From positions 879,001 to 943,000 of the forward strand of contig NZ_CP089985.1 of assembly GCF_021390155.1 (NCBI RefSeq): a stretch of DNA of 64,000 nt, given 5' to 3'. The notes below the pieces were generated by a model. It saw only the letters and a program-made list of their open reading frames with translations, did not search any database and was not told the origin of the DNA. Shown here piece by piece: positions 2,518 through 39,814 of the stretch. A program made the position numbers and the translations under genes. Source of the DNA: Pseudomonas sp. HN11. GTDB lineage: Bacteria > Pseudomonadota > Gammaproteobacteria > Pseudomonadales > Pseudomonadaceae. Each line of letters begins with the position of its first letter. Position 1 is the first letter of the stretch.

Positions 2518-4227
2518 GTGATGAAGTTAGCCATTGTTACCGCCTGCCCGAACGGTATGGTCACCAGTGTGCTGTGCGCCCGCTTGTTGGACGCCGCCGC
2601 GCAACGTCAAGGCTGGAGCACCAGCGTGGAAGTGGTGGATGTGCAGCGCCCGGAGCGCCAGTTGTCCCAGGCCACGATCGACGACGCCGAATGGGTGTTG
2701 TTGGTCAGCAGTACCCCGGTTGAAATGCAGCGGTTTGTCGGTAAGCGCGTGTTCCAGAGCACGCCGGCCCAGGCGCTGGCGGATGTCGACGCCGTATTGC
2801 GTCGCGGCGCCGAAGAGGCGCAGGTGTATGTTGCTACGCAGCAGGCTACCAAAAATGCGCCACGCATCGTTGCCATTACCGCATGCCCTACCGGCGTCGC
2901 CCACACGTTCATGGCTGCCGAAGCCTTGCAGCAGACGGCCAAGCGTTTGGGCTATGACTTGCAGGTCGAGACCCAAGGCTCGGTGGGTGCGCGTACACCG
3001 CTGAGCCCCCAAGCCATCGCCGATGCTGACGTGGTGTTGCTGGCTGCTGATATCGAGGTCGCCACCGAGCGCTTTGCCGGCAAGAAGATCTACCGTTGCG
3101 GCACCGGCATCGCCCTCAAGCAGTCCGAAGCCACGCTCAACAAGGCCCTGACCGAAGGTGCGGTAGAAAACGCGGCCAGCGGTGCAGTCGCCAAGAAAGA
3201 AAAAACCGGCATCTATAAGCATCTGCTGACCGGTGTGTCGTTCATGTTGCCGATGGTGGTGGCGGGCGGGTTGTTGATCGCTTTGTCGTTCGTGTTCGGC
3301 ATTCACGCGTTTGAACAGGAAGGCACACTGGCCGCCGCATTAAAAACCGTGGGTGACCGCGCCTTCATGTTGATGGTGCCGTTGCTGGCGGGTTACATCG
3401 CCTACTCGATTGCCGACCGCCCCGGCATTGCCCCCGGCATGATTGGCGGTTTGTTGGCGGGCACTTTGGGCGCGGGTTTCATCGGCGGCATCCTCGCCGG
3501 TTTTCTCGCCGGCTACTGTGTCAAATTCATCTCCCGTGCGGTGCAATTGCCGCAGAGCCTGGAAGCACTCAAGCCGATTTTGATCATCCCGTTGCTGGCG
3601 AGCCTGTTTACCGGCCTGGCGATGATCTACCTGGTTGGCCCGCCGGTGGCGCGTCTGCTCACGGGCCTCACTGACTTTCTCAGCACCATGGGCACCACCA
3701 ACGCGGTGCTGCTGGGCATTTTGTTGGGCGGCATGATGTGTGTCGATCTGGGTGGGCCGATCAATAAAGCGGCGTATGCGTTTTCCGTCGGATTGCTGGC
3801 GGCGTCCAGTGGTGCGCCCATGGCGGCGACCATGGCGGCGGGTATGGTGCCGCCGATTGGCATGGGCATCGCCACCTTCCTGGCCCGTCGCAAGTTCGCC
3901 CAGACCGAACGCGAGGCCGGCAAGGCAGCGATGATTCTCGGCCTGTGCTTTATCTCGGAGGGCGCGATTCCATTTGCTGCCAAGGACCCGTTGCGCGTAA
4001 TCCCGGCCAGCATTGCCGGCGGCGCGCTGACCGGAGCACTGTCGATGTACTTTGGCTGCAAACTGGCTGCGCCCCATGGCGGCCTGTTTGTATTGGTGAT
4101 TCCGAATGCGATGAACCACGCGCTGCTGTATTTGCTGGCAATCGTTGCCGGTAGCCTGTTGACGGGGATGGTGTACGCGTTGATCAAACGTCCGGAAGCT
4201 GTCGAACTGGCTGTCGCGCCAACCTGA
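2518..4227 (+). CDS. fruA: Fructose PTS permease, EIIBC component
   Basis: A 569-residue inner-membrane protein that imports fructose and phosphorylates it to fructose 1-phosphate. Two EIIB-like domains come first: the N-terminal copy (about 1-100) carries TACPNGMVTS near residue 10, and the second (about 117-215) carries the phosphorylation motif TACPTGVAHTFMAAEAL with Cys123. A charged linker (about 220-235) leads to the membrane EIIC domain (about 235-560), with many hydrophobic segments and the loop GGPINKAAYAF. The end of the domain has FISEGAIPFAAKDP, typical of fructose/mannitol EIIC. The start has RBS AGAGGG 9 bases upstream. It is the last gene of the operon; an 8-bp perfect hairpin follows at 4301-4320. 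Confidence 0.95.
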   Translation: MMKLAIVTACPNGMVTSVLCARLLDAAAQRQGWSTSVEVVDVQRPERQLSQATIDDAEWVLLVSSTPVEMQRFVGKRVFQSTPAQALADVDAVLRRGAEEAQVYVATQQATKNAPRIVAITACPTGVAHTFMAAEALQQTAKRLGYDLQVETQGSVGARTPLSPQAIADADVVLLAADIEVATERFAGKKIYRCGTGIALKQSEATLNKALTEGAVENAASGAVAKKEKTGIYKHLLTGVSFMLPMVVAGGLLIALSFVFGIHAFEQEGTLAAALKTVGDRAFMLMVPLLAGYIAYSIADRPGIAPGMIGGLLAGTLGAGFIGGILAGFLAGYCVKFISRAVQLPQSLEALKPILIIPLLASLFTGLAMIYLVGPPVARLLTGLTDFLSTMGTTNAVLLGILLGGMMCVDLGGPINKAAYAFSVGLLAASSGAPMAATMAAGMVPPIGMGIATFLARRKFAQTEREAGKAAMILGLCFISEGAIPFAAKDPLRVIPASIAGGALTGALSMYFGCKLAAPHGGLFVLVIPNAMNHALLYLLAIVAGSLLTGMVYALIKRPEAVELAVAPT

Positions 4228-4300
4228 TGGCACGCGCCGGCAATAGGGGCACTGCGCTGTAGCTACGCCCGGGTGGTCGCGGTTGCACATCGGCATGGAA

Positions 4301-4320
4301 CGGCGACCTCTGGGTCGCCG
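4301..4320. terminator. Hairpin between convergent fruA and LysR gene
   Basis: CGGCGACC and GGTCGCCG form a perfect 8-bp stem with a 4-base loop in the 108-base gap between two convergent genes. No U-run follows on either strand, so it may be a weak terminator or an RNA end-stabilising hairpin. Confidence 0.4.
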
Positions 4321-4335
4321 GGTGCCTCAAGGGTG

Positions 4336-5277
4336 TCACGTTCGTCTAAGCCCCCCTAATATGCCACCCACTGGTGTCAGGCTGGCGGTCAATGCGTCCA
4401 GCAAGGCACTGACCTTTGGCAGCGACTGACGGCTTTTGACCCAGGCAAGGTTGATCGGGATGCCCTCGGTGGCCAGATGGGGCAATACTTCCACCAATGT
4501 TCCTTCTTCCAACTGCTGATTAATCAGCCACGATGGCAATTGCGCGATACCACAGCCCGCCAGTACCGCCATCAACAAACCTTCGCCATTGCCGATCACC
4601 AACCGGGCGGGTACCGGCTGGCGTTTAATGGCGCCAGGATGGTCCCCTGCAAAACTCCACGGGGTGATATTGCCATCCACCCAGCCATAGGCGATGCACT
4701 GGTGATGCTCCAGGTCCTGCTCCGTGAGTGGCATGCCGTGCTTGGCCAAATAGCTTGGGGATGCACAGAAGGTATGCCACTCACTGGCCAGGTAACGGTG
4801 GCCCACTCTTTCGGGCCAGACATCGGCGCCGCCAATGCGCACGACCACGTCCACGCCCTCCTGGAACGGGTCGATCAACCCGTCGGAGAACGTGATATGC
4901 GGTATCAGCAGCGGATGATCCTGCATGAACCGCAGGAGCGTCGGTAGCACTTGTGCGCGGCCGAATGCGCCGGGAAGGTCGATTCGAATACGGCCACGTG
5001 GCTCGATATTGTCGACTTGCAGTGACAACTCTGCCTCTTCAAGGTCGGCGAGCACACCGATGCAGGTGCGATAGAACGCGATCCCCGCATCGGTCAGCGC
5101 CAGGCGTCGGGTAGTGCGTTGAAAAAGCCGAGTGCCCAATCGGGTCTCCAGCCGGGCGACACTTTTACTGATAGCGGAGCCTGTCAAATTCATTCTCTCG
5201 GCAGCGGCCTTGAAGCTGCCGGTTTCCGAGACGCAAACGAACACATCAATCCCTTTCAAGCGCTCCGAGGAAAACAT
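4336..5277 (-). CDS. LysR-family transcriptional regulator
   Basis: A 313-residue LysR regulator. The N-terminal helix-turn-helix (about 3-62) contains VSETGSFKAAAERMNLTGSAIS and the wing LETRLGTRLFQRTTRRLALTDAG. The effector-binding domain follows, with the FSDGLIDPFQEGVDVVVRIG stretch typical of the CrgA/DhcR-like subgroup that recognises small aromatic or quinone-like effectors in other species. ATG at 5277 is preferred over GTG at 5283 because AGGG lies 7 bases before it. It is divergent from the accessory cluster beginning at 5727 and convergent with fruA. LysR regulators often control a divergent neighbour, so the cluster is the likely target (inference). The effector is unknown. Confidence 0.85.
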   Translation of the reverse strand: MFSSERLKGIDVFVCVSETGSFKAAAERMNLTGSAISKSVARLETRLGTRLFQRTTRRLALTDAGIAFYRTCIGVLADLEEAELSLQVDNIEPRGRIRIDLPGAFGRAQVLPTLLRFMQDHPLLIPHITFSDGLIDPFQEGVDVVVRIGGADVWPERVGHRYLASEWHTFCASPSYLAKHGMPLTEQDLEHHQCIAYGWVDGNITPWSFAGDHPGAIKRQPVPARLVIGNGEGLLMAVLAGCGIAQLPSWLINQQLEEGTLVEVLPHLATEGIPINLAWVKSRQSLPKVSALLDALTASLTPVGGILGGLRRT

Positions 5278-5726
5278 ACGCACCCTGTATCCATGAATTC
5301 AGTTCCACCTATCTGGTAAAAATTATCATAAATCAGAACGTGGCACGGCGGTAAGCTAGACGCACGAATACCTGTCAGTGATTCGCTATTAGCAATGTCA
5401 TAAAAATGACCTATTGATCGACGAGGCGAGAATGCTGGTCACCTTTAAAAGAAACCTGACGACGTTAAGTGCTCTTTCTCGGCACTTCGCCTATCGACCC
5501 CTTTACGAGCAATTACCGGGTCTCCTGTTTATGGCGTGGTATTGCTTCACCTCCCCGAGCATTCTCATGCAGCAGGAATAGGGCAAAACTCCTTTCAAGT
5601 GACCGATGGCATCTCCCCTGTAGGGCGCTATTGCGTGGAAGAAATCGGTCGCAAACACCGAAACCAGGTGTGCTTTTTTATCGGTAAGCGGTTTGTGCGC
5701 AAACTATTGTCATCAAGGAGGAATAA
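5278..5726. other. Intergenic control region between LysR gene and accessory cluster
   Basis: A 449-base divergent region, visibly A+T-rich at 5310-5420. It holds short A/T tracts such as AAAATTATCATAAAT near 5317-5331 that could contain the LysR promoter and operator, but no clear -35/-10 pair was found. Two short overlapping open frames fall inside: ATG 5432-5584 and GTG 5536-5769. Just before the first cluster gene there is a strong RBS AAGGAGG at 5715-5721. Confidence 0.5.
5432..5584 (+). CDS. Possible 50-residue leader ORF upstream of the accessory cluster
   Basis: An ATG at 5432 with GAGG a few bases upstream opens a 50-codon frame ending at TAG 5582-5584. The product begins MLVTFKRNLTTLSALSRHF and has a moderately hydrophobic C-terminal half (LPGLLFMAWYCF). 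In the +1 frame a GTG-started frame (5536-5769) overlaps its end and runs into the next gene. No family is recognised. It could be a leader peptide, a remnant of a frameshifted gene, or chance. Low confidence. Confidence 0.22.
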
Positions 5727-6689
5727 ATGCTTTCCAAGGAAGTTTATACACTGGCATGTGCAGGGTTGAAAAAGTTGGCACTTAACCAGGAGTGTCGTGA
5801 CGCGTTCGATAAAAACTCTTTGTTTTTCAGGTTGTTCGAGCGCGCTGCGCATCGCTACATTATCGCGTCGGACGCACAGGAACTGAGCCGCAAGTTGCAG
5901 GTGCTCGCCTTAAAAGGCTATCAACTGGGTGTTGAATATGTGGGTGAAGAAAATCATGATCCCCAGGTTGTAAAAAGTTTCGTCAGCGAGTACCTGAATG
6001 CCATCCAAGGGTTTGCCCGCGCTGGTTTAAAACCGCAGTTGGGGTTTGATCTAAGTGCTGTGGGCATGCTCATTTCCCAGGAAACGGCTTATCACAATGC
6101 TGCCACTATTTTGTCGGCGGCGGCTGAACACGACATCCCCGTCATGATCAGCATGGAGCACTCTTCGGCCGTCGATAAGATTTTTGAAGTATATGCCGAA
6201 CTTGCCCCGGCTCATCATAATGTCGGTATTACCGTGCAGGCGCATTTGCATAGAACTGTCGAGGATTTGCCGCGCATCATCAGCTATGGACGTAAAGTCA
6301 GATTGGTCAAAGGCGTTTACAACGAGTCACCCGAAGTTGCGCTGCCCCGTGGTGAAGAACTGGATAAACGCTACCTGACGTTACTTGATGACTTACTGGC
6401 CGCCCATGTGTCGGTAAGTTGCGCGACGCAAGATCCAAACTTGATCAAGCGTCTTTTCGACGGTGCTTATCACTCGAAGATCGATGAACTGGAAATGCTC
6501 CACGGCGTGCAACCGGAGGTGTTGCGCCGCGCCAAGGACGAAGGCCTGACCTGCCGGATTGCCGCCGTGTATGGCGATAGCTGGTACCTGCATTTCCTGC
6601 ATCGCCTGGCGGAATCGCCAGACAACGTCCTTGAGGCACTCGCCGACTTCTACGACCCCTCTCGTATCACCTTTGGCGCTGGTTATTAA
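5727..6689 (+). CDS. Proline dehydrogenase family flavoenzyme (PRODH-like), cluster gene 1
   Basis: A 320-residue protein resembling single-domain bacterial proline dehydrogenases, which use an FAD-binding barrel to oxidise L-proline to pyrroline-5-carboxylate. Visible landmarks: GFDLSAVGMLIS (near 110), HLHRTVEDLPRII with the strand VRLVKGVYNE (near 190-205), SCATQDPNLIKRL (near 231-243) and the C-terminal block AAVYGDSWYLHFLHRLAESP (279-298). Family PRODHs usually have an Arg-Arg pair in that last block that binds the substrate carboxylate; here it reads His292-Arg293, so the substrate may not be proline. The RBS AAGGAGG at 5715 is strong. The next gene starts 10 bases after the stop. The catabolic bifunctional PutA is about four times longer, so this is not the housekeeping enzyme. 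Confidence 0.8.
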   Translation: MLSKEVYTLACAGLKKLALNQECRDAFDKNSLFFRLFERAAHRYIIASDAQELSRKLQVLALKGYQLGVEYVGEENHDPQVVKSFVSEYLNAIQGFARAGLKPQLGFDLSAVGMLISQETAYHNAATILSAAAEHDIPVMISMEHSSAVDKIFEVYAELAPAHHNVGITVQAHLHRTVEDLPRIISYGRKVRLVKGVYNESPEVALPRGEELDKRYLTLLDDLLAAHVSVSCATQDPNLIKRLFDGAYHSKIDELEMLHGVQPEVLRRAKDEGLTCRIAAVYGDSWYLHFLHRLAESPDNVLEALADFYDPSRITFGAGY

Positions 6690-6699
6690 CGGAGCAGTT

Positions 6700-7761
6700 A
6701 TGTTTATCGATCTCAGAAGCGATACGGTCACCAAGCCAACGGAAGGCATGCGCAAAGCTATTTACCAGGCGGAAGTCGGGGATGAATGTTTCGGCGAAGA
6801 CCCGAGTGTGCGTGCACTTGAAGAGTTCTGTGCCCATTACTTTCAGAAGGAAGCGGCGCTCTTCACCACGGGTGGCACACTGAGTAACCAGTTGGCAATC
6901 AAGTCCCTTACCCAGCCGGGTGATGAAATTTTTCTGGATGCCTCATACCACATCAACTATTACGAGGCCGCCGCTACCTCGGCGTTTTCCGGGGTCAACT
7001 TCTCATTGTCGTCCCACGACAACGGGTTGTTTGATGTCAGTGATCTGCAAAAGCTGTATGCCTCGCGCTGCCGTTGGAATCAGAATTACGCCTTGCCGCG
7101 CGTGGTGGTGATTGAAAACACCCTTGGATGCAAAGGCGGGGCGATTTTTCCTCTGGCGCAGATGAACGAAGTTTTCGGTTATGCCAAGACTATCGACGCC
7201 TATCGTTACCTGGATGGTGCCCGCATCCTGCATGCCTCTATCGCTTCGGGCATTGATGTGACGTCCTATACGGAAAACGCCGACCTCATGTCCATGTGTT
7301 TGTCCAAGGCCCTTGGCGCACCCGTCGGTTCGATCATGGTGGGTTCCAAAGAGCTGATACAACGCGCCAAGAAGTACCGTAAATGGTTTGGCGGCGATCT
7401 TCATCAGGCCGGCATGATGGCCGCTGCCGGGCTCTATGCGATGCACAATAATATTGAACGCCTGGCCGAAGATCATGAGCATGCGGCCCTGCTGCACCGT
7501 TTGCTCAGCGATATCGAAGAGACGCCTGCGTACTACAAGGGGACCAATATGGTGACCCTGGATATTTCTGCGCTGGGTATCACACCGATGCAATTCGGTA
7601 CGCACCTGAGCCAACAAGGTGTCGGCGGCCTGCCCTATAACGCGAGGGAAATGCGTTTTATGCCGCATATCAATATCAGCCGCGCCGACGTCCTCAAGGC
7701 GGCGGGGATAATCAAAGCCGCCGTGCGTGAATTGAGTTCAACACGGGAGGCCGTCAAATGA
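6700..7761 (+). CDS. Threonine aldolase / beta-eliminating lyase family PLP enzyme, cluster gene 2
   Basis: A 353-residue fold-type I PLP enzyme. The start FIDLRSDTVTKPTEGMRKA is the canonical N-terminus of low-specificity L-threonine aldolases, which cleave beta-hydroxy amino acids to glycine plus an aldehyde, or run in the reverse direction. Further landmarks are GDECFGEDPSVRALEE, the ENTLGCKGG loop, the PLP-phosphate region LDGARIL and the Schiff-base Lys203 in MCLSKALGAPVGS. The first ATG, at 6700, has GGAG 6 bases upstream (6691-6694). The gene lies 10 bases after gene 1 and its TGA overlaps the ATG of gene 3 (ATGA). In this setting it could build or trim a beta-hydroxy amino acid for the pathway (inference). 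Confidence 0.85.
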   Translation: MFIDLRSDTVTKPTEGMRKAIYQAEVGDECFGEDPSVRALEEFCAHYFQKEAALFTTGGTLSNQLAIKSLTQPGDEIFLDASYHINYYEAAATSAFSGVNFSLSSHDNGLFDVSDLQKLYASRCRWNQNYALPRVVVIENTLGCKGGAIFPLAQMNEVFGYAKTIDAYRYLDGARILHASIASGIDVTSYTENADLMSMCLSKALGAPVGSIMVGSKELIQRAKKYRKWFGGDLHQAGMMAAAGLYAMHNNIERLAEDHEHAALLHRLLSDIEETPAYYKGTNMVTLDISALGITPMQFGTHLSQQGVGGLPYNAREMRFMPHINISRADVLKAAGIIKAAVRELSSTREAVK

Positions 7762-9062
7762 TCTACAAGAAAAATATAGTATTGATTGTCGACGCCTATT
7801 CAATTGGCAGTTTGATCGCGCCTGCGTTCATGTCACGAGGGTATGAATGTGTGCATGTGCGTTCGACCGCCGACGTGAATGCGTTTTATGAAACCTGGTT
7901 CCGCACCGGGGATTTCATCAACGACCTGCTTTATCGCTCGGATGCAGCGTTGCAGGAGGCACTGTCCGAATATTGCGTGCAGTTCGTCTTGGCCGGTTGT
8001 GAGTTCGGCGTCGAGTTGGCTGCTCATCTGGCTGCGTTGTTCAACGTCCCGCGCCATAACAATCCTGCGCACGCAGTGCGCTGGCGCGACAAGTACCAGA
8101 TGCACGAGGCGTTGTCGCGTGCGGGTGTACGTTCGATCAAGCACTTCAAGTCAGCCGCGTTGCCGGGCATTCTGGACTGGGTCAAGGAAAACGACATGCT
8201 GCCGGTGGTATTGAAGCCGGTTAAAAGCGCGGGCTCCGACAACATCCACATTTGCACTGACGTCAGCCAGATTGAACATGCTTTCCAGGTCATAAAATCC
8301 AGCCGCAATATCTTTCTGGAAAGTAATGAAGAGATTTTGGTGCAGCAATATCTGGATAACTCGGATTTCAAATCCGAGTTATTGCTCAGCAAATCCAAGG
8401 ACGTAGACATCGAATACTGCGTGAATACCGTGAGTGTCGATGGCCTGCACTATGTCAGCGAAATTATCCGTGTTTTCCGCACCCGTATTGGTGCCTCGCC
8501 GGTGCATGACTACAATCAGTTGATGTGCCCGGTGGACAATGCCGACGTCTACAGTCGACTCTCGGGTTACATATTCGCCGTACTCGACGCGCTGGGCATC
8601 CGCAACGGCGTAGGGCATAGCGAATTGATGATCGTCGATGACGAACCCGTGCTGCTCGAGACGGCTGCGCGCATGCCGGGCGGTATCGATCTTTCGGCCT
8701 ATACCCGAGCCTTGGGGCATAACCAGTTGAGCCTGTGGATCGACTCGCTGATCAATCCTGAGGCCTTTCTCGACTACCGCCAACGGCCGCGAAAAAAACT
8801 CTACTTCCATTCCAGTTGCGTATTTTTGATCTCGCGCCATGCGGGGCCGATCACGCGTACGCCGGACATCACGGCGTGGAAGGCGATCCCTGGCGTGCAC
8901 AGCATAAAAATCCAGGATGAAGGCGTCCTCAAACCGACCATTTCCCTGGAAAACAGCCCAGGTCATGTATTTATCCTCGATAGCAATCGCGCGAACATCC
9001 AGCACAGCATCGAATTGCTGCGCGAGCATGAGCCAAGCGTCTACAGGGAAATGCTGACATGA
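7758..9062 (+). CDS. ATP-grasp ligase (L-amino acid ligase-like), cluster gene 3
   Basis: A 434-residue ATP-grasp enzyme that would join a carboxylate to an amine through an acyl phosphate. An N-terminal Rossmann-like pre-ATP-grasp region (about 1-105, starting NIVLIVDAYSIGSLIAPAF) is followed by the ATP-binding part: VVLKPVKSAGSDNIHIC (near 152-168), EILVQQYLD (near 191), DIEYCVNTVSVDGLHYVSEI (near 216-235), then GVGHSELMIVDDEPVLLETAARMPGG (near 290-315), which supplies the Mg-binding acidic and Asn/Arg positions. This layout and the EYxVNTVS strand resemble BacD/RizA-type dipeptide synthetases. The ATG overlaps the previous stop and the stop overlaps the next ATG, so expression is coupled to the neighbours. 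Substrates are unknown. Confidence 0.85.
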   Translation: MIYKKNIVLIVDAYSIGSLIAPAFMSRGYECVHVRSTADVNAFYETWFRTGDFINDLLYRSDAALQEALSEYCVQFVLAGCEFGVELAAHLAALFNVPRHNNPAHAVRWRDKYQMHEALSRAGVRSIKHFKSAALPGILDWVKENDMLPVVLKPVKSAGSDNIHICTDVSQIEHAFQVIKSSRNIFLESNEEILVQQYLDNSDFKSELLLSKSKDVDIEYCVNTVSVDGLHYVSEIIRVFRTRIGASPVHDYNQLMCPVDNADVYSRLSGYIFAVLDALGIRNGVGHSELMIVDDEPVLLETAARMPGGIDLSAYTRALGHNQLSLWIDSLINPEAFLDYRQRPRKKLYFHSSCVFLISRHAGPITRTPDITAWKAIPGVHSIKIQDEGVLKPTISLENSPGHVFILDSNRANIQHSIELLREHEPSVYREMLT

Positions 9063-10276
9063 AGCACGTCTCGGAGGGGCTGGTAGGCCAGAGTCAAGCC
9101 AAAGTCTATGACAGACCTGTGATCCTGCTGCTGTCGGCGACCTTTATCCTGACGGTTGCCAGGGCGTTGGCGTTGCCCTATCTGGTTATTTACTTCTCCG
9201 AGGCGTTTGGGCTGGGAGTCGCAGATATCGGTCTTGCGGTCGGCGGGGCGTTGATCGTCAGTTCAATCCTCGGGGTGTATGGCGGGTTTTTGGTGGACAA
9301 GTTCTCCAACTACCGGGTCATGCTCGCTGCTGCGACGGTGTTCTCGCTCGCGTTCGCGGTGGCTTTTCAAGTCACCAGCCTGGTGCCGTTCATCATCGCA
9401 ATTGTGGTGGTGAACCTGGCCTATGCGGTGGTGGATATCGCGGTCAAATCCGGCATAGGTTTTTTGGTGGCGCCAGACAAGCGCGGGGGCGTGTTTTCGC
9501 TGAAGTACACCTTGACCAACGTGGGCTATGCCGTTGGCCCTTTTCTGGGGGTGATCTTTGCCAAGGTCAGTCCAGGGCTGCCGTTTGCAGTGGCGGCGTT
9601 GATCGGGGTGCTTTTTGTCGTGCTGTATGCGCTGGTGGGCGGTCGGATTCCTCGGGCGTCCGGCAGTGCGAGTGACGGTAGCGGAACGAGTTTCGCCAAC
9701 GTATTGGTGCATCTGGTGAGGAACTACCGGCTGGTGTGTTTCACGATCGGCGGCATTCTCAGCGCCATTGTGTTCGGGCAGTTCACGGCCTACTTGTCGC
9801 AATACCTGATCGTGACCAGCGACCCGCAGAACGCGTACCGGATTATCAATTACCTGGTCACCACCAACGCCTGTGTGGTTATCGGTCTCCAATACCTGAT
9901 CGGCTCCCGGATCAACCAGCACAACCTGTTTCGCATGTTGATGTTGGGCATGCTGTTCTTTGTAGTCGGGCTGATGGGGTTTGCCTATGCGCAGCTACCG
10001 ATTATCTGGGTACTTGCGATGATTGTTTTTACCGTGGGCGAAATTATCATTATTCCGGCGGAATACTTGTTTATTGATTACATAGCACCGGAGGACATGC
10101 GCGGTGTTTACTACGGCGCGCAGAACTTGTCGAACTTGGGGGCTGCCCTGGGGCCGGTGTTATGCGGCGTTGCGTTATCGTTCTATGCGCCCCAGGCGAT
10201 GTTCTATGTCTTGTCCATGTGCATCGTGGTCGCGAGCGGTTTCTATTTTATGGGCTCCCGGCACAGGGCTGATTGA
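9059..10276 (+). CDS. MFS transporter, cluster gene 4 (probable product exporter)
   Basis: A 405-residue major facilitator protein with about 12 hydrophobic segments. The first begins VILLLSATFILTVARALALPYLVIYF, and the A-loop reads GGFLVDKFSNYRVMLAA near residues 75-90. Mid-protein there is a polar serine/glycine-rich stretch (about 197-212) between the two six-helix halves, and the second half contains DYIAPEDMRGVYYGAQNLSNLGAALGP. ATG overlaps the ATP-grasp stop (ATGA at 9059-9062). ATP-grasp ligase plus MFS pairs occur in dipeptide-antibiotic loci such as bacD-bacE, where the transporter exports the product and gives self-protection. Export here is inferred from that arrangement, not shown by the sequence. 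Confidence 0.85.
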   Translation: MKHVSEGLVGQSQAKVYDRPVILLLSATFILTVARALALPYLVIYFSEAFGLGVADIGLAVGGALIVSSILGVYGGFLVDKFSNYRVMLAAATVFSLAFAVAFQVTSLVPFIIAIVVVNLAYAVVDIAVKSGIGFLVAPDKRGGVFSLKYTLTNVGYAVGPFLGVIFAKVSPGLPFAVAALIGVLFVVLYALVGGRIPRASGSASDGSGTSFANVLVHLVRNYRLVCFTIGGILSAIVFGQFTAYLSQYLIVTSDPQNAYRIINYLVTTNACVVIGLQYLIGSRINQHNLFRMLMLGMLFFVVGLMGFAYAQLPIIWVLAMIVFTVGEIIIIPAEYLFIDYIAPEDMRGVYYGAQNLSNLGAALGPVLCGVALSFYAPQAMFYVLSMCIVVASGFYFMGSRHRAD

Positions 10277-11391
10277 TGATTCACTTTAATACTGCAGGGG
10301 CGGGCCGCGTCTCCGCTGAAACGTTGGGTTTGATGCAGGCTTACCTGCAAGAAGAACATGAAGTCGGCGCTTATGAAACCGAGCTGTCCCATGCCGAAAC
10401 GCTGGACGGTGAAGTCTATGAAAACATTGCTCGGTTACTCGGCGCCAATGCCCGCAATATTGCACTTTTCGATGGCGCTACAAAGGCTTGGGTAACGGCA
10501 TTGAACGCCTTGCCCTGGGCCAAGGGCGCGCGCGCCGTGGTCACCCCCTATGAGTACGCTGGCAACCTGATTGCACTCTCCGAGTTGCAACGCCGGTACG
10601 GTATCAAGGTTGACGTGATGCCGCTGCTGGCAAATGGCGATCTGGATCTGCAATGGCTGGCGCAACACATGAGTGCGCAAGTCATGTTGGTCTCGGTGGT
10701 GCATGTGCCGTCGTGCTGCGGCATCGTGAATGATGTCGAGGCGGTGGGTAATATCTTGCGTGATTACCCTTGCTTCTACTTTGTCGATGCCTGTCAATCG
10801 GCGGGCATGCTGCCCCTGGAGGTGCAGGCGATGGGCGCCGATGTGCTGACCGCGGCGGGCAGAAAGTTTCTCTGCGGGCCCAGGGGCACGGGCTTTGCCT
10901 ACCTGTCCGACGATTTTATGGCGGCTGCACAACCGCGCTTCACGGATTTGAGCAGGGCCAATGTTGATGTGCGCGGGGTGGTGAGCCTGGAGACCGACGA
11001 TGCCCGACGTTATGAATATGCCGAGCGCAACAATGCGGCGGTGGTTGGGTTGAACCAGGCGATCAAAGAACGTCTATCCGTTGCACATAACATTGAGCGC
11101 GGGACCTACCGGTTTCTTTATCAGCAACTGGTACAGGCGCCGCACATCAGTGTCATTGCTCCAGGCACACAACAAGCGGGAATTGTCGCCTTTACCCATG
11201 CTCGTTATTCGGCAACCGAACTGGTTGCTTATATGCGCAAGCAGGGTGTGAACGGCTGGCCGGGATATGCCGCGCACACGCCGTATTATATGTTGGGGCA
11301 GGGGTACGATCGCTTCGTGCGCCTTTCGATTAATAATAAAAACAGTCTTGAAGATGTGCAGGTGTTCATGGAGCTGTTGGCGAAACTGTAA
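10276..11391 (+). CDS. Class V aminotransferase / cysteine desulfurase-fold PLP enzyme, cluster gene 5
   Basis: A 371-residue fold-type I PLP enzyme of the class V (NifS/isopenicillin-epimerase-like) group. It starts MIHFNTAGAGRVSAETL, a typical beginning for that group. It has VSVVHVPSCCGIVNDVEAV near 140, the Asp/Gln PLP-contact strand CFYFVDACQSAGMLPL near 170, and the Schiff-base Lys197 in AAGRKFLCGPRGTGFAYLS. The C-terminal small domain contains GVNGWPGYAAHTPYYML. ATG at 10276 shares its A with the upstream TGA (TGATG); a TTG at 10273 is also possible but less likely. The family includes desulfurases, lyases, epimerases and transaminases, so the reaction cannot be named. It is the fourth gene of the overlapping chain. 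Confidence 0.83.
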   Translation: MIHFNTAGAGRVSAETLGLMQAYLQEEHEVGAYETELSHAETLDGEVYENIARLLGANARNIALFDGATKAWVTALNALPWAKGARAVVTPYEYAGNLIALSELQRRYGIKVDVMPLLANGDLDLQWLAQHMSAQVMLVSVVHVPSCCGIVNDVEAVGNILRDYPCFYFVDACQSAGMLPLEVQAMGADVLTAAGRKFLCGPRGTGFAYLSDDFMAAAQPRFTDLSRANVDVRGVVSLETDDARRYEYAERNNAAVVGLNQAIKERLSVAHNIERGTYRFLYQQLVQAPHISVIAPGTQQAGIVAFTHARYSATELVAYMRKQGVNGWPGYAAHTPYYMLGQGYDRFVRLSINNKNSLEDVQVFMELLAKL

Positions 11392-11542
11392 TAATGAAGT
11401 TATATAAAAGACGTGAAAGAGTGAGGGTAATGATCGTTGATGATCTGTTGCTGTTCGGTCGGTTATTGAGCAGTTATCCACTATAAAGTGGCTTCGCCGA
11501 TTCGAGGGGTGACAATAAAACTCGCGTCGCGTGGCGCGCTTT

Positions 11543-11548
11543 TATAAT
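11543..11548 (+). promoter_or_regulatory. Perfect -10-like box before the desaturase gene
   Basis: TATAAT sits 57 bases before the desaturase ATG in a gap of 213 bases that is more A+T-rich than its surroundings. No good -35 is visible at 16-18 bases upstream, so this is only a possible separate promoter. Nothing else was recognised in the gap. Confidence 0.3.
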
Positions 11549-11604
11549 CTTGCGTATCAGGATTAACGATACTGAACGCCTTGAACTGAGGAAAAGGAAT
11601 TCTG

Positions 11605-12591
11605 ATGAGTAACGTAACCAAGTTCAATCCTGCCAATGAAGTGAAACAGCGATTGCGTGCACTTTACAAAAAGGACAATTGGCATTGGATATTGGCGGTG
11701 CTTGCCGATTTGGCCGTTATCGCACTGGCGGTTTTTTTTGCGGATCGCTACAACTATTTGTACCCACTGGCGCTGCTGTTCATAGGCTCCCGACAACGGG
11801 CATTAGCTTCGCTTCTGCACGAAGCAGCACACATGACGCTGACCCAGAGCAAAAAGCTCAACAAAATCATCGGAGAGTATTTACTCGGCTACCCGATCTT
11901 TCAAAATTATGAGGCTTACCGTCGCTCCCATGTGCAGCTTCACCACCACAACCTCGGTGACCCCCATAAGGACCCGGACCATCGCTATTACATCGAGTCG
12001 GGCCTGTATAACGCGACCGACCGCTTCGACTTCCTGATCGGGCATTTACTCAAAAGCCTGACGCTGGCCAATACCTATCGTTACTTCCTCTACCTGGTGA
12101 AGAACCGTGCCGGGGATATCCTGGCCAACCCGTCGCAGGGGCTGAAATTGCTGGCTGTTCACACAGTGCTGCTGCTGGTGTTCAGCTACTTCATCGGCCC
12201 ATGGGCTTATGTGCTGTTTTGGCTGGTGCCCTATTTCACGGTGTTCCAGGTGATTGGCTGGTTGTCCGAAGTCTCTGAGCACTTCGGTATGTTTGGCCTC
12301 TACCACGAAGAGGTGCAACTGACCCGCAATCGCTTCCCCACGCTGATTGAGCGCTCGATCATCGGCATGCATGGCGATAACTACCACCTGACCCATCACC
12401 TGTTTGCCGGCATCCCGTTCTGGAACTTGAAGAAAGCGCACCAGGTGTTGATGGACGACGAGCGTTACGCCGCCGCCAACCAAGGTTGCGGTGGGATTTT
12501 CACGGCGAAGGGCGACGCGAAATCCAGCATCGATCAAATTTTCGAGGCCTATCGCAGCGGAAAGATCAGCGCAGTCGCCATCGCCCAGTAA
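11605..12591 (+). CDS. Membrane diiron fatty-acid-desaturase-family protein, cluster gene 6
   Basis: A 328-residue integral membrane oxygenase-type protein with the three histidine boxes of the desaturase/hydroxylase superfamily: HEAAH at 72-76, HVQLHHH at 109-115 and HLTHH at 261-265. Hydrophobic segments lie near 28-60 and 165-215. Such enzymes use O2 and a diiron centre to desaturate or hydroxylate C-H bonds. Most act on acyl chains, but RtxC of rhizobitoxine biosynthesis is a member that desaturates an amino acid, a useful precedent next to amino-acid enzymes. The RBS GGAAAAGGAA precedes ATG 11605. It is separated from gene 5 by 213 bases, so membership of the cluster is probable but not certain. 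A G+C-rich hairpin follows at 12601-12620. Confidence 0.85.
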   Translation: MSNVTKFNPANEVKQRLRALYKKDNWHWILAVLADLAVIALAVFFADRYNYLYPLALLFIGSRQRALASLLHEAAHMTLTQSKKLNKIIGEYLLGYPIFQNYEAYRRSHVQLHHHNLGDPHKDPDHRYYIESGLYNATDRFDFLIGHLLKSLTLANTYRYFLYLVKNRAGDILANPSQGLKLLAVHTVLLLVFSYFIGPWAYVLFWLVPYFTVFQVIGWLSEVSEHFGMFGLYHEEVQLTRNRFPTLIERSIIGMHGDNYHLTHHLFAGIPFWNLKKAHQVLMDDERYAAANQGCGGIFTAKGDAKSSIDQIFEAYRSGKISAVAIAQ

Positions 12592-12600
12592 CGTGTTGAT

Positions 12601-12620
12601 AGCGCAGCCTCGGCTGCGCT
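12601..12620 (+). terminator. Hairpin after desaturase gene
   Basis: AGCGCAGCC and GGCTGCGCT form a 9-bp inverted repeat with a 2-base centre, 10 bases after the desaturase stop. No U-run follows, so termination strength is doubtful. It marks the likely 3' end of the accessory cluster. Confidence 0.4.
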
Positions 12621-18354: not shown

Positions 18355-18999
18355 GCTGGGAACTCCTAAGGGCAAACTGTAGTAATCAATGGGTGCAACT
18401 GAACGTCCTCCGTATCCCCACTTTGGTTCGCCTACTTCCCAAGGCATGTCGCCGAAAGCAAAAAGGCCATGGGAATAACCGCTTCCCTTGGCCTTGCTGT
18501 CTCGTCGTCAGTACTTGAGCCGGATGGATCGTTTCCAGCATGGACGTTCGGCGCGAACTTTAGGACGTGAGGGGCCATAGATCAACTAAAAATGTCGCGT
18601 TTTTGCACGCGTTCGTCGCGGTGCGTGGCTGAGGTACGTTTTAACCGACCCTTATGACAGGCAGATGTTCCCGTTTTCAGGTCTGGGTCTGCGAAATGAT
18701 CCTTGCGCGGCGTGCATTGTTGGTGCCGTAGGCATAGTCACTGACGCAATGGAGGATGCTTCGGATATCCAGAAAAGATATAAGTAATGACGATGACCTG
18801 TTAGGTATGACAGTAGCCAAATTTGCATGCCTTGTGAATACTGAGTTTGCAATGAGTTGACTGTAAAAAAAATAGCCGGTCCTAAAGCAGGTTTTTTATA
18901 AATCGTGGTTGTGTGCGTGGATGAATTTGTTCGCGCGCTAGTATTGTTTTGTATGTTTTAAGGCTGGTATCTCAACCTATAAGCGGCGAGGTATTAGCC
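18355..18999. other. A+T-rich intergenic region between speC and secreted-protein gene
   Basis: A 645-base divergent gap. The left part holds the speC leader and hairpin. From about 18590 to 18990 it becomes clearly A+T-rich compared with the flanks, with stretches such as GTAAAAAAAATAGCC near 18861-18875. No gene, repeat or recognisable promoter pair was identified. The short minus-strand frame 18652-18852 has no feature to support it. Confidence 0.5.
18461..18495 (-). terminator. Terminator-like hairpin in the speC leader
   Basis: On the minus strand AAGGCCAAGGGAA, a 7-base loop and TTCCCATGGCCTT form a 13-bp stem with one mismatch, followed directly by a T-run. It lies about 105 bases before the speC start and upstream of an in-frame ATG at 18447. 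It could stop transcripts entering from upstream or act as an attenuator; no minus-strand gene lies just upstream to need a terminator. Confidence 0.55.
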
Positions 19000-20463
19000 A
19001 TGAGCAATAAAGGAAAAAGAACCACTGGAACGTTGTTGCTGGTCTGTGTTTTGGCAATGAGTTCGACTTGTGTGAATGCGAGTCCGGGCACTGATGCGGC
19101 GACAATGATGAGGTATTTGTATAACTTTACCGCCCGCGATTGTGGTAACGGCAGATTGGCATCGGAATGTTCTGGCCTCATGTTGCGAGGAATCGCCAGC
19201 AAGCAAAGTTATCTTCCATGGGATCCAAGCCCTTACTCCCACAGTCTCGAGGTCGGCGGCTTTGGGCCGCCCAACCTCTCCAACAGGGGGGTATCGGTTT
19301 CCTATCTGAGGACGGATACCAGCTATGACGGCCTCGGCCTTAACAAATTCAACGGCTTTGCCTTAAAGCCGAATGATTTTGTCGACCCTAAGACTGAGTT
19401 CAAACTAAAAGTGTTATGTGCCTTTCCAATTGACTCGTGGACGGGCAATCGGACTGACGCGGGTTGTGGGGACTATCAGGAAAACCTTAATACGCTGGAG
19501 GCTGTCGAAGACTATTGCCAAAAATTGGGCGTTAGTAATGCCAGTGCATGGTTGGAGCATTTTCACCGGCAGCCCACTCAGCCGAGTCTTAAGTCGCATA
19601 AGTATCAGTGTGGCTTTGATACGGTGAATAACTATTTTGGTACTTATAATAAGGCGGATGCTTTTAATACATTTGTCGAGGCGAGAAAATTGTTGGCCAA
19701 TGATGCTGCTGACAAGGTTGATGCACAAGTGACTCAAACTGAATTGCGCCTGTTGACCTGGCCCGACAACAAGTATTGGAACCGCGATTGGGGGGCTACC
19801 CGACCTCAGTTCGATGCGCCTCTTGATCCATCGCTGGAGGTCAATAAAACCTATAAGCAGCTGCCGATCATTGCCTTTATCTACGTCAGTAGGGTGGGGG
19901 TCATTCATTCCGATGGTAGGGTGTTTGAGGCTCGGGAGCTTGCCCGGGATGATCAGCGCAGGTGGCTAGAGCAAGGGAATGCCTGGAAGCCGATCGTACA
20001 TCTGGAAATGCCTAAAAACAGTGGAGAGGACGCCAGGTTTACCTACATCAGCGCTGACCAGTCTCCAGTGGCCCCTGAGCCGGTCGACCCACGGTCATGT
20101 GATAAGTACATTGAAAGCGTCGAATGGACGGATAATTACGTCGAGCCCGTCATGGGCATCATTGCCTCACTTAAAGTCACCCCCACTGAGTGCGGCAGGA
20201 AAGCCGGTGTGGGTAAAACGGATGTGGTGTATGCGGAGTTGGCCAACCTGGCCGCCAATGACATGAGCAAGCCCTGGAACTTCGACCACTTGGGCAGCAG
20301 CATGCGCCGTCAACTGGGTTGCCATTTGGACTCGCCGTTCATCGCCGCTAACAAGGAGAGCTGGAGCCTGGAGCCGGCGCGTCCCTATGTGCCCCATGAT
20401 GTGATCATGAAGCTGGAAGGGAACAGCCTGTGCAACCCCAACAGTGTCAATACGAAGGCGTAG
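19000..20463 (+). CDS. Secreted cysteine-rich protein, possibly halovibrin/DUF2599-like
   Basis: A 487-residue protein with a Sec signal peptide (GKRTTGTLLLVCVLAMSSTCVNAS, cleavage near 27). The mature part has at least nine Cys, mostly paired along the chain (for example CGNGRLASEC), suggesting disulfides and a periplasmic or extracellular location. The C-terminal region (about 380-440), with CDKYIESVEWTDNYVEPVMG and LKVTPTECGR, resembles what I recall as DUF2599, and full-length relatives in pseudomonads are sometimes labelled halovibrin, a Vibrio fischeri secreted ADP-ribosyltransferase. I cannot confirm catalytic residues. ATG 19000 is chosen over 18949 because GGCGAGG precedes it and the signal peptide then starts correctly. 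Base composition is richer in A+T than its neighbours. Confidence 0.7.
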   Translation: MSNKGKRTTGTLLLVCVLAMSSTCVNASPGTDAATMMRYLYNFTARDCGNGRLASECSGLMLRGIASKQSYLPWDPSPYSHSLEVGGFGPPNLSNRGVSVSYLRTDTSYDGLGLNKFNGFALKPNDFVDPKTEFKLKVLCAFPIDSWTGNRTDAGCGDYQENLNTLEAVEDYCQKLGVSNASAWLEHFHRQPTQPSLKSHKYQCGFDTVNNYFGTYNKADAFNTFVEARKLLANDAADKVDAQVTQTELRLLTWPDNKYWNRDWGATRPQFDAPLDPSLEVNKTYKQLPIIAFIYVSRVGVIHSDGRVFEARELARDDQRRWLEQGNAWKPIVHLEMPKNSGEDARFTYISADQSPVAPEPVDPRSCDKYIESVEWTDNYVEPVMGIIASLKVTPTECGRKAGVGKTDVVYAELANLAANDMSKPWNFDHLGSSMRRQLGCHLDSPFIAANKESWSLEPARPYVPHDVIMKLEGNSLCNPNSVNTKA

Positions 20464-32807: not shown

Positions 32808-34205
32808 TTAAAGAATGTTGAACGGGATGGTGGTGACCAGGCGGAACTCTTTGATGTTGCCGTCAGCTTGTTGCGCGCTGGCGCGGTGAGTCACGTAGGT
32901 GCCACGGATGGTCGTGGCCTTGAGCGGGCCGCTCTGAATTGCGTAGGAAGTACCAACGCCGTATTCCTGGTGTTTCTCACCGTCCATGAGGCGCAGGTCG
33001 CTGCGCGATACGCCGGCTTCGCCGTAGGCGGTGCCGTTGTAGTGAGTACCGTCGATGCCCCAACCGCGAGCCGAGTAGACGTTGAACTTCAGGCCTGGTA
33101 CGCCGTATTCGGCCATGTTGATGGCGTAGGCGATCTGGAAAGACTTCTCGTTCGGGCTGTTGAAGTCCGAAGTCAGGGAGTTGGCCAGGTAGATGCCGTT
33201 GGTCTCGTGCAGGTAGTCGAAGTACTCGTCACCGTTCACTTCCTGGTACGAGAAGGTCAGGCTGTGGGCCTGGTGGGTCAAGCCCAGGGACAACGAGTAG
33301 GTATCGTTGTCGATGTTGCCCATCTTCTTGCTGCCGGTGTCGGTGGTCTTGTAGTAGTTCAGGCCGGTGGTCAGTGCCAGCGTCTGAGCATCACCCAGTT
33401 CGTGGGTAGCGCCGAAGTAGTACTGGTTCCAGAAGTCTTCGACGTTGGCGGCGAACACGCTGGTTTTCAGGCTCTTGAACGGCTGGTAGTTGAAGCCCAG
33501 GGTTTTGACCTTGTCGGTTTCCTGGCCATTGCCGTATTCGGAACGGAATTTCGACAGGCTCTGCTCGGTACGCGGCGAAACGCGATCGAAGATACCGCCC
33601 TGGAACGATAGGTTGCTGAACTCTTCGCTGTTGAAGCTCACGCCTTCAAAGCTCGAAGGCAGGGCACGGTTGCCGATGGTGTCGACGATACCGGTGCTGA
33701 AGTTCTGGCGACCGGCGGTCAAGGTGGTGTTGGAGACACGGAACTTGACGTTGGCCAGGCCCAGCTTGCTCCACTGGCCTACAGCGTCGCCGCCGGAATC
33801 CGCCAGGGTACGGTTGGAGCCGCCGGCGATATCTTTGCGATCGCGGTCGAGGGCGATGAAGTTGTAGGCAGCGACTTCAGTGCTGACCCCGACAGTGCCT
33901 TGGGTGAAGCCCGAGGTGTAGTTGAGGATGGTGCCCTGGGCCCAGTTGATACGGCGGGAGATCGGCGTCTTCACACCGTCTTTGCGGTAGCTGAAGCGGT
34001 CGTTGCGAAACTTCATTTCGTTCGCATACCAGTTGCGAGTGGTACCGCCCAGGCTTTGACCGTCGATAAAGCCTTTGGCCTCGCTTTGCGCGCTGGTGCC
34101 GGCCAGGGTGGTCGGAACGAAGTCCTGGCTGGCGGGTTCCGCGTAGGCGGTGGCCGTGATGCTGCTGATGGCCAGGGCCAGAAGCGCTTTGCTGCTCAGT
34201 TTCAT
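32808..34205 (-). CDS. opdP: OprD-family outer-membrane porin (OpdP-like)
   Basis: A 465-residue 18-strand porin of the OprD family. Signal peptide KLSSKALLALAISSITATAYAE (cleavage near 22). Then comes FVPTTLAGTSAQSEAKGFIDGQSLGGTTRNWYANE, the usual OprD start, with ARG/aromatic strands such as DGVKTPISRRINWAQGTILNYTSGFTQG. The C-terminus ends with the outer-membrane signature EFRLVTTIPFNIL. ATG 34205 has AAGGAG 7 bases upstream. Its place inside a dpp locus matches opdP of P. aeruginosa as I recall it, where it admits glycine-glutamate dipeptides and arginine; the same role is inferred here. Confidence 0.88.
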   Translation of the reverse strand: MKLSSKALLALAISSITATAYAEPASQDFVPTTLAGTSAQSEAKGFIDGQSLGGTTRNWYANEMKFRNDRFSYRKDGVKTPISRRINWAQGTILNYTSGFTQGTVGVSTEVAAYNFIALDRDRKDIAGGSNRTLADSGGDAVGQWSKLGLANVKFRVSNTTLTAGRQNFSTGIVDTIGNRALPSSFEGVSFNSEEFSNLSFQGGIFDRVSPRTEQSLSKFRSEYGNGQETDKVKTLGFNYQPFKSLKTSVFAANVEDFWNQYYFGATHELGDAQTLALTTGLNYYKTTDTGSKKMGNIDNDTYSLSLGLTHQAHSLTFSYQEVNGDEYFDYLHETNGIYLANSLTSDFNSPNEKSFQIAYAINMAEYGVPGLKFNVYSARGWGIDGTHYNGTAYGEAGVSRSDLRLMDGEKHQEYGVGTSYAIQSGPLKATTIRGTYVTHRASAQQADGNIKEFRLVTTIPFNIL

Positions 34206-34375
34206 TGATGAAGCTCCTTTGGTTCTCTTTTTAATGCCGGTCTTTTTTGGTGATCCGGCTATTGGGTGTGTAACTCTTTTCAAGCCTTGCAAACGTTTGC
34301 CGTAGGAAAAATCCTAATAAATGGCTGCACGTTTGCTGGAGAGCCACATCGCTCTCCTGCAATCCGGTTATTTTC

Positions 34376-35980: not shown

Positions 35981-36283
35981 GACGATCCCGATCCTTGTTT
36001 GTAGTTGTCATCAGCGAGCAATCATCCGGGCGTTCGGCCAGGGTGACATCACTGATCCCACACGCAGCAAGTGCCTTTCCGAGTTGGGAACCTCTGCTGT
36101 CCTACGACGTTATGGGTCGTGGACCTGGCAGTAAATGCGCCAAATCGGATTGACCTTGTAGGTAACGGCGTCACGCATCGCGGTTCATTGCTGTAGGACG
36201 CAATGATCGTGAGCGTGGTCTATTCCTACGGTCCAGGCGGATGCAATAACGGCGACGCTAGGAAGCGTCGCCGTCAGTGATCC
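35981..36283. other. Intergenic gap between two binding-protein genes
   Basis: A 303-base gap with no plausible gene. It includes a 9-bp perfect hairpin at 36251-36272 just after the upstream gene. In P. aeruginosa, as I recall, mdpA and psdR lie at this place; neither is here. No operator was recognised. Confidence 0.55.
36251..36272 (-). terminator. Hairpin downstream of second binding-protein gene
   Basis: GGCGACGCT and AGCGTCGCC make a 9-bp perfect stem with a 4-base loop, 11 bases after the stop on the minus strand. It is followed by GTTATTGC, a poor U-run, so termination is uncertain. Confidence 0.5.
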
Positions 36284-37912: not shown

Positions 37913-38121
37913 GTTGGCCTCATGATTTGTTGTCATTTTTGGTGGTGAGGGCGACCTCGTGAGTCGGCCTGCGGATACTTATGCAGGCGCCATACCCATT
38001 GCAAGATGCTGAACCGTCACGGGGGTGAAACAGTGGTACGAACGTACAGGAATGTCGCAATTATGAAAGTTTGTACATATTTGCGCATATTTTGAGGTTT
38101 TTTTCGGTGCAGGACGCGCAC

Positions 38122-38160
38122 CAAAAAAGACCAACCGAGGCGTCTGGCGCACTCGGTTGG
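38122..38160 (-). terminator. Rho-independent terminator after first binding-protein gene
   Basis: On the minus strand CCAACCGAG, a 12-base loop and CTCGGTTGG form a 9-bp stem followed by TCTTTTTTGG. It lies about 10 bases after the stop of the 38171-39772 gene, so that gene is transcribed separately, at least in part. Confidence 0.88.
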
Positions 38161-38170
38161 GGCGTTGCTG

Positions 38171-39772: not shown

Positions 39773-39814
39773 GGAGACCCCTGAAGTGGCAGGCATACAA
39801 ACGTTGCCCAAACA

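What the first reader, a model, noticed from the sequence alone, without database searches (positions are those of the whole stretch)
5727..12591. Undescribed-looking biosynthetic cluster: PRODH-like, threonine aldolase-like, ATP-grasp, MFS, class V PLP enzyme, diiron desaturase
Seen: six plus-strand genes behind a divergent LysR regulator. Genes 2-3, 3-4 and 4-5 overlap by 1-4 bases and genes 1-2 are 10 bases apart, so at least five are translationally linked. Known: ATP-grasp ligase plus MFS exporter is the core of dipeptide-antibiotic loci such as bacilysin. PRODH, threonine aldolase and class V PLP enzymes modify amino acids; a membrane desaturase (RtxC) modifies an amino acid in rhizobitoxine synthesis. 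Inference: the cluster makes and exports a small dipeptide or unusual amino acid, perhaps an antimetabolite. I do not recall a characterised pathway with this set.
Basis: partly seen in the sequence, partly recalled or inferred. Interest (0 to 1): 0.88.

Follow-up and report, generated by a model that had tools for sequence, protein, structure and literature searches.

The report
Arginine-modifying peptide-antibiotic gene island
A Pseudomonas chromosome carries a self-contained island of seven genes that probably turns arginine into an unusual amino acid, joins it into a small peptide and pumps it out; the core enzyme set recurs in very different bacteria, and I found no description of it.

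Summary
In detail: six intact genes (A PRODH-like, B aldolase, C ATP-grasp, D MFS, E class V PLP, F desaturase-like). With the divergent LysR gene they form one ~8.4 kb insertion between fruA and phoD; in 9 of 9 relatives with phoD the neighbours are adjacent without it. The co-occurrence test passes: in 398 Pseudomonas genomes A and E occur in the same 15, all among the 22 with F. Two versions exist: A-B-C-D-E-F (window) and F-A-C-MFS-E, the latter also in Streptomyces. The bare trio F-A-E sits on a marine plasmid beside amino-acid exporter genes, so I read it as the core. Window F groups with GntB-type arginine hydroxylases, not rtx-type proteins. A is a PRODH fold with a rebuilt pocket (K, D, R became D, S, H in at least 149 of 151 aligned, a redundant set; the host's PutA keeps K, D, R). 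E lacks the desulfurase cysteine. Best reading: an arginine-derived amino acid is ligated into a short peptide and exported. Product, substrates and role are inferred; 2-aminohistidine is my boldest proposal. Nothing is biochemically shown.

The parts
4336..5283 (-). LysR-family regulator, divergent from the operon; inside the inserted island
   Evidence: Pfam PF00126/PF03466; a 75% homologue stands divergent before gene A in Pseudomonas sp. Ant30-3, where the outer flanks differ (L054); not found between fruA and phoD in 9 of 9 empty sites. In the corrugata, mediterranea, mosselii and 6D_7.1_Bac1 loci no close homologue stands there, only distant LysR matches (30-35%) elsewhere or none.
5727..6689 (+). 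Gene A: PRODH-fold (FAD) dehydrogenase with a rebuilt substrate pocket (320 aa)
6700..7761 (+). Gene B: PLP-dependent aldolase of the GntG / threonine-aldolase kind (353 aa)
   Evidence: NF041359 GntG family 284 bits over cut-off 230; PDB 1jg8 L-allo-threonine aldolase E 8e-77. Seen in the 14 window-type clusters and in none of the second-version loci. The genome has another relative at 36% identity.
7758..9062 (+). Gene C: ATP-grasp L-amino acid ligase (434 aa)
   Evidence: Pfam PF13535 28.9 bits over cut-off 27; nearest PDB 30vh 'L-amino acid ligase' E 1e-46, then BacD; below the cut-offs for DdaF, BacD and PRK07206.
9059..10276 (+). Gene D: MFS transporter, probably exporter (405 aa)
   Evidence: Pfam PF07690; best NCBIfam model YdeE 238 bits, below its cut-off 582.
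10276..11391 (+). Gene E: class V (SufS/EgtE-fold) PLP enzyme without the desulfurase cysteine (371 aa)
11523..11538 (+). Terminator-like hairpin between E and F
   Evidence: Pattern scan only, 1 found, 0.2 expected.
11605..12591 (+). Gene F: membrane diiron hydroxylase of the GntB kind (328 aa)
   Evidence: NF041365 GntB 432 bits over cut-off 380; histidine boxes HEAAH 72, HVQLHHH 109, HLTHH 261; tree.
4200..12619 (.). Extent of the island relative to the empty site in a close relative
   Evidence: Homology to G017 ends at about 4199 and resumes at about 12620; fruA and phoD adjacent in 9 of 9 relatives with phoD; GC 50-57% inside, 59-62% outside.

Best explanation
An inserted, probably horizontally acquired, biosynthesis-and-export island. 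Core (F, A, E): the membrane diiron enzyme F hydroxylates arginine (or a close relative) at C4; the PLP enzyme E acts on the hydroxylated alpha-amino acid, most likely by losing the 4-hydroxyl and closing a ring; the PRODH-fold flavoenzyme A removes two electrons from a C-N bond of the product. The resulting non-proteinogenic amino acid is activated and joined to a second amino acid by the ATP-grasp ligase C, and the small peptide is exported by D under control of the LysR regulator. B supplies or trims one building block by an aldol or retro-aldol step in this version only. Shown by computation: gene content, co-occurrence, island boundaries, folds, altered pocket residues. Inferred: all substrates, the reaction order, the peptide product, regulation and the biological role (probably an antimetabolite against competitors). 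The stated confidence is for the outline; the exact ring chemistry is far less sure (see novel case).
For: A and E in exactly the same 15 of 398 Pseudomonas genomes, all within the 22 with F. All 15 loci read: 10 window-type (E split in one), 5 with F-A-C-MFS-E. Same five-gene set in three Streptomyces; F-A-E with two ATP-grasp proteins, an AMP-binding protein and a P450 in Streptomyces NBC_01006. F-A-E alone beside AzlC/AzlD-type exporter genes on a Pseudosulfitobacter plasmid, so the trio seems to make an exportable amino acid without a ligase. F over the GntB cut-off. A: K to D 150 of 151, D to S 150 of 151, R to H 149 of 151, second R kept 151 of 151 (redundant set), while the host's own PutA keeps K, D, R, R. 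E keeps the carboxylate arginine and PLP lysine and lacks the Cys. C nearest to L-amino acid ligases.
Against: No product, substrate or activity is known. F of the second version scores 287-327 bits, below the GntB cut-off and like rtx-type proteins (316-322), so arginine as substrate is not assured there. Proteins over the GntB cut-off also sit in other settings (L043 beside a DMT transporter), so the family name is weak evidence of substrate. A relatives of 32-41% identity occur without F or E nearby in 6 of 9 plasmid loci opened; at least one of these (L071) has the full D/S/H signature, so that signature is not confined to the trio. C and D pass no equivalog cut-off. The adenylation-domain reading in NBC_01006 gave no guanidino-type code. 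LysR is not linked in all lineages.
Confidence: 0.6

Rival explanations
1. F and A alone build the unusual amino acid: F makes 4-hydroxyarginine, A oxidises the C4 alcohol to 4-oxoarginine, which closes by itself to a 2-aminoimidazole; E then modifies the amino-acid end or a different intermediate.
For: Same gene data; A's pocket is rebuilt, so a non-proline substrate is likely.
Against: Known PRODH chemistry is C-N, not alcohol, oxidation (recalled); E is as tightly bound to A as F is.
Confidence: 0.15
2. F is a desaturase, as in rhizobitoxine synthesis (RtxC), and the product is an unsaturated amino acid (vinylglycine-like).
For: F of the second version is sister to the rtx-type clade (98/94) and not over the GntB cut-off; same desaturase/hydroxylase superfamily.
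Against: Window F lies in the other clade, 36-39% identical to the rtx-type rows and 432 bits to GntB; no PhnW-like or sulfhydrylase-like partner as in L050 and L080.
Confidence: 0.12
3. A true guanitoxin-like pathway.
For: F and B pass the GntB and GntG models.
Against: No GntC over cut-off in the whole genome (28 weaker matches, best 298 against 415); no other gnt model over its cut-off among the six proteins (B has a 19-bit match to GntC); extra ATP-grasp, PRODH and class V enzymes.
Confidence: 0.02
4. A catabolic or nitrogen-salvage operon that degrades arginine or hydroxyproline-like compounds, with D as importer.
For: PRODH and aldolase families are mostly catabolic (recalled); the host has a separate PutA, so A could degrade another substrate.
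Against: An ATP-consuming ligase in the operon, MFS nearest to an efflux family, patchy distribution 15 of 398 and island insertion, a presumably O2-dependent hydroxylase.
Confidence: 0.08

Closest known systems
Mangotoxin (mbo) cluster of Pseudomonas syringae (PMC13185094; abstract, part 1 of 3 of the Results, the Discussion and passages read)
   Same: Pseudomonas; arginine residue oxidised; ATP-grasp ligases build a short peptide; antibacterial.
   Different: Oxidase is a heme-oxygenase-like diiron enzyme acting on the tripeptide; two ligases, a deiminase and a reductase; no PRODH, class V PLP or GntB-type enzyme mentioned in the parts read.
Guanitoxin (gnt) pathway (PMC10367076; passages read)
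   Same: GntB-type arginine gamma-hydroxylase and GntG-type aldolase by sequence model.
   Different: No GntC over cut-off in the genome; class V PLP enzyme and PRODH-fold enzyme instead; peptide ligase and MFS transporter.
Bacilysin / dapdiamide ATP-grasp dipeptide loci
   Same: L-amino acid ligase plus MFS exporter (loci recalled); C matches the DdaF and BacD models weakly.
   Different: C is below the DdaF and BacD cut-offs; the amino-acid-making genes are unrelated to anticapsin or dapdiamide genes (recalled).
Rhizobitoxine-type loci (L050, L080; L051 by gene cluster and tree)
   Same: A membrane diiron enzyme of the same superfamily.
   Different: Partners are PhnW-like and sulfhydrylase-like PLP enzymes; that these mark rtx loci is recalled. 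F of the window is in another clade.
Proline dehydrogenase (PutA, Thermus and Deinococcus PRODH)
   Same: Fold and overall sequence.
   Different: Proline carboxylate-site residues K, D, R are D, S, H.

Membership tests
Guanitoxin pathway | GntB arginine gamma-hydroxylase | tested here: met
   NF041365 432 bits, cut-off 380; sequence model only, activity not tested
Guanitoxin pathway | GntG-family aldolase | tested here: met
   NF041359 284 bits, cut-off 230; subfamily-level model
Guanitoxin pathway | GntC cyclodehydratase | tested here: not met
   none over cut-off in the cluster (B 19 bits); 0 of 28 matches in own genome over cut-off 415, best 298
Proline dehydrogenase | PRODH fold | tested here: met
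Proline dehydrogenase | Lys/Asp/Arg-Arg proline carboxylate site | tested here: not met
   D/S/H-R in window A; D 150, S 150, H 149, R 151 of 151 aligned (window's own copy twice, five genomes twice); own PutA K/D/R-R. Roles of these residues are recalled
Cysteine desulfurase (SufS) | class V PLP fold | tested here: met
Cysteine desulfurase (SufS) | catalytic loop cysteine | tested here: not met
   0 of 31 sequences have Cys at the column that one search aligns with it
ATP-grasp L-amino acid ligase | sequence relation to characterised ligases | tested here: met
   PDB 30vh over residues 4-423, E 1e-46; BacD E 2e-6
ATP-grasp L-amino acid ligase | amide bond formation | not testable with these tools
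   needs assay
Dapdiamide synthase DdaF | NCBIfam equivalog cut-off | tested here: not met
   218 bits, cut-off 840
Rhizobitoxine locus | PhnW-like plus sulfhydrylase-like PLP partner genes | tested here: not met
   neither model over its cut-off among the six proteins: E has 47 bits to a PhnW model with cut-off 361; partners present in L050 and L080. That these mark rtx loci is recalled
Mangotoxin locus | heme-oxygenase-like diiron oxidase and two ATP-grasp ligases | tested here: not met
   one ATP-grasp and no such oxidase domain among the six proteins in Pfam

The most novel reading that the evidence does not exclude
F, E and A are a three-enzyme route from arginine to 2-amino-L-histidine, a histidine/arginine hybrid: F makes 4-hydroxyarginine, E closes it to the cyclic guanidine L-enduracididine (a second, unrelated solution to the GntC reaction), and A, a proline dehydrogenase turned to a five-membered cyclic guanidine, oxidises the ring C-N bond to a 2-aminoimidazole. 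In A the K-to-D change would hold the alpha-amino group and the kept arginine the carboxylate of a longer amino-acid tail. The window cluster then hides this toxic amino acid in an exported peptide. A trio-linked exporter of the AzlCD kind, a family reported to export histidine among other amino acids in Bacillus (PMC10882977, passages read), would fit, though the exporter is broad and the AzlC match is below its cut-off. Expected [M+H]+ of the free amino acid 171.088 (own arithmetic).
Probability: 0.15. Interest if true: 0.85.

Novelty: new variant of a known kind. Interest (0 to 1): 0.63.

Why it matters
A three-gene amino-acid-making cassette that recurs in Pseudomonas, Streptomyces and marine Rhodobacterales, with indirect signs of it in Burkholderia and other actinomycetes, and that plugs into different ligation and export modules is a ready genome-mining hook for new small-peptide antibiotics. 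It also contains what looks like a biosynthetic branch of the proline dehydrogenase fold with a re-engineered substrate pocket, which is directly testable with three proteins. The present database names (guanitoxin hydroxylase, proline dehydrogenase) may point readers to the wrong pathways.

Tried and rejected
Guanitoxin pathway: rejected for lack of GntC. Rhizobitoxine: rejected for the window type on the F tree and partner genes. Literature: ten searches; seven looked for the cluster, its chemistry or its genes, for 2-aminohistidine names (0 papers), 67 and 86 for transporters. Nothing listed describes this gene set, but I judged by titles and abstract openings, searches listed only 20 of 169 and 20 of 100 papers, the library lacks most subscription papers, and the guanitoxin discovery paper is not held. 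PMC3429515 (passages read) says YdeE is involved in dipeptide transport, but D is far below the YdeE cut-off, so this is only a hint. PMC8473136, PMC11888242 and PMC8976061 (passages read) describe other clusters. Adenylation-domain codes in NBC_01006 and L042 gave no guanidino-type reading (template fragment and code interpretation recalled). Only short, imperfect repeats were found in the island, none framing its ends; no tRNA gene in the window. Promoter patterns: none found. The Foldseek search of E was not run; the VIA lists cannot exclude other families.

The shared-contig count compares equal contig lengths in three protein tables cut at 120 rows each (of 197, 178 and 2003), so it is indirect and a lower bound. 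In the F tree I left out ten near-duplicate loci and used 25 of the 120 listed proteins; L086 and L087 came later and the split F of L067 was too short. The alignments for structure prediction are 31 and 30 sequences picked by hand. In the genus scans at most five first-look candidates per genome were scored.
Full report
What is there. The six genes are as described. Every one aligns over 97-100% of its length with its homologue in the closest loci (L033, L058). With the divergent LysR gene they fill the space between fruA (ends 4227) and phoD (starts 12682). Of 29 relatives searched with phoD, 10 matched, one being the own genome; in the other 9 of 9 fruA lies next to phoD with no LysR and no cluster between. 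Against the relative G017 homology stops at about 4199 and resumes at about 12620. GC is 50-57% inside against 59-62% outside. So this is one inserted island of about 8.4 kb; loss in all nine relatives is possible but less simple. In Pseudomonas sp. Ant30-3 a LysR homologue (75%) again stands divergent before gene A although the outer flanks differ; in the corrugata, mediterranea, mosselii and 6D_7.1_Bac1 loci it does not. Two overlapping terminator-like hairpins lie upstream of A at 5645-5671 (0.5 expected) and one between E and F; these are pattern matches only.

Conservation. The same 398 Pseudomonas genomes were scanned three times: F at E<=1e-40 in 22, A at E<=1e-30 in 15, E at E<=1e-55 in 15. 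A and E occur in the identical 15 genomes, all of them among the 22. The thresholds were mine, and at most five candidates per genome were scored. Ten of the 15 have the window order A-B-C-D-E-F (E split by an insertion in one, Ant30-3); five have F-A-C-MFS-E without B. The other seven F genomes have other settings: one beside an NRPS (L042), three of DMT-transporter type (L043 and L045 shown by family search, L044 by match only), three in the rtx-type clade (L050 with partner genes shown, L051 by gene cluster, L048 by tree position only, its partner genes not seen). Four more named Pseudomonas loci bring the window type to 14 genomes (P. cedrina, P. mediterranea, SJZ074, 6D_7.1_Bac1). A 398-genome sample of the phylum gave A (E<=1e-50) only in the own genome, so it is rare overall.

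Beyond Pseudomonas. Three Streptomyces have F-A-C-MFS-E. Streptomyces NBC_01006 has F-A-E with two ATP-grasp proteins (one fused to an epimerase-like domain), a peptidase, an AMP-binding protein, a P450 and an MFS that does not match the second-version MFS. A Pseudosulfitobacter plasmid has F-A-E after AzlC, AzlD and Lrp genes (AzlC scores 58 bits against a cut-off of 332); a Roseovarius plasmid with the same neighbouring proteins has F split by an IS3 element. Of 18 plasmid records with A relatives I opened 9: 3 carry the trio, 6 (32-41% identical to A) have no F or E in the stretch read; in one of the six, Peribacillus, a GntB-type gene lies elsewhere on the same plasmid beside a DMT transporter. 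In the protein tables, equal contig lengths of 5 kb or more link A with E in 21 cases and A with F in 9, against 0.3 and 0.2 expected after jittering; these include Burkholderia savannae and Paraburkholderia bannensis for A with F. This is indirect.

Modular history. Pairwise identities show A and E about equally far between lineages (A 40-53%; E 36-51%, but 55-56% among Streptomyces), whereas F and C both fall into two versions that switch together (window F to second-version F 34-41%, within the second version 48-91%; window C to second-version C 30-33%, within it 46-94%). D also differs, 23-27% to the second-version MFS. The F tree puts trio-linked F proteins in two well-supported clades: one with GntB-type proteins of Burkholderia and P. 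syringae, one sister to rtx-type proteins (56 rows; 2 changes forced, 0 of 500 shuffles as low; long branches meet in the second clade, so its exact place is unsure). I read A+E as the constant core, with the oxygenase, ligase and transporter exchanged. This is inference from distances, not a reconciliation analysis.

Mechanism. The trio alone beside amino-acid exporter genes suggests that F, A and E suffice to make one free amino acid; the ligase clusters then build it into a peptide. With a hydroxylase of GntB type first, E would act on a hydroxylated alpha-amino acid (its carboxylate arginine is kept), and A on a C-N bond of something other than proline. The simplest chain that uses known chemistry of each family is hydroxylation, PLP-driven loss of the hydroxyl with ring closure as in GntC, and ring C-N oxidation, giving 2-aminohistidine. 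Only the families and pocket changes are shown; substrates, order and product are inferred. B, present in 14 of 14 window-type loci and in none of the second-version loci, must add a step specific to the window product; I cannot say which. The role as an antimetabolite is an inference from the ligase-exporter pattern.

Comparison with the known. Ten searches of the library listed no description of the set; that library lacks most subscription journals, and two of the listings were cut. The nearest Pseudomonas analogue in working is mangotoxin; the nearest in enzymes is guanitoxin; membership of either fails on tested features. I rate it a new variant of a known kind (ATP-grasp small-peptide loci), with a core cassette that appears undescribed in what I could search.

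Noticed in passing
window 32808-39829 (-): OprD-family porin beside three family-5 solute-binding proteins: probably a dipeptide/oligopeptide uptake locus.
   Followed up: no
window 46109-47833 (+): SbmA/BacA-like ABC transporter (a family linked to peptide-antibiotic uptake, recalled).
   Followed up: no
window 39879-43001 (-): ORF of 1040 aa with no Pfam match at 1e-8, no NCBIfam match at 1e-4 and no PDB match at 0.01.
   Followed up: partly
window 18949-20463 (+): 504-aa protein with a C-terminal DUF2599 domain.
   Followed up: no
window 5645-5671: Overlapping terminator-like hairpins on both strands just upstream of gene A (2 found, 0.5 expected); could be chance or attenuation.
   Followed up: no
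L054 15365-17973: Class V gene of the cluster is split by an insertion of about 2.6 kb in Pseudomonas sp. Ant30-3.
   Followed up: partly
L067 5639-7841 and L076 5852-6928: The trio on two related mobilisable marine plasmids: desaturase split by IS3 in Roseovarius THAF9, whole in Pseudosulfitobacter.
   Followed up: partly
L072, L073, L079, L043, L045: A recurring pair of GntB-type gene and DMT transporter on plasmids and chromosomes of Priestia, Peribacillus, Salmonella and Pseudomonas: perhaps an export-only hydroxy-amino-acid unit.
   Followed up: no
L071, L074, L075: Lone PRODH-like genes on Bacillota plasmids, without F or E in the stretches read; L071 has the full D/S/H signature, the other two at least the Asp.
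   Followed up: partly
L066 3555-5825: ATP-grasp protein fused to an Ala/Glu-epimerase-like domain near the trio in Streptomyces NBC_01006, hinting at an epimerised dipeptide product.
   Followed up: no
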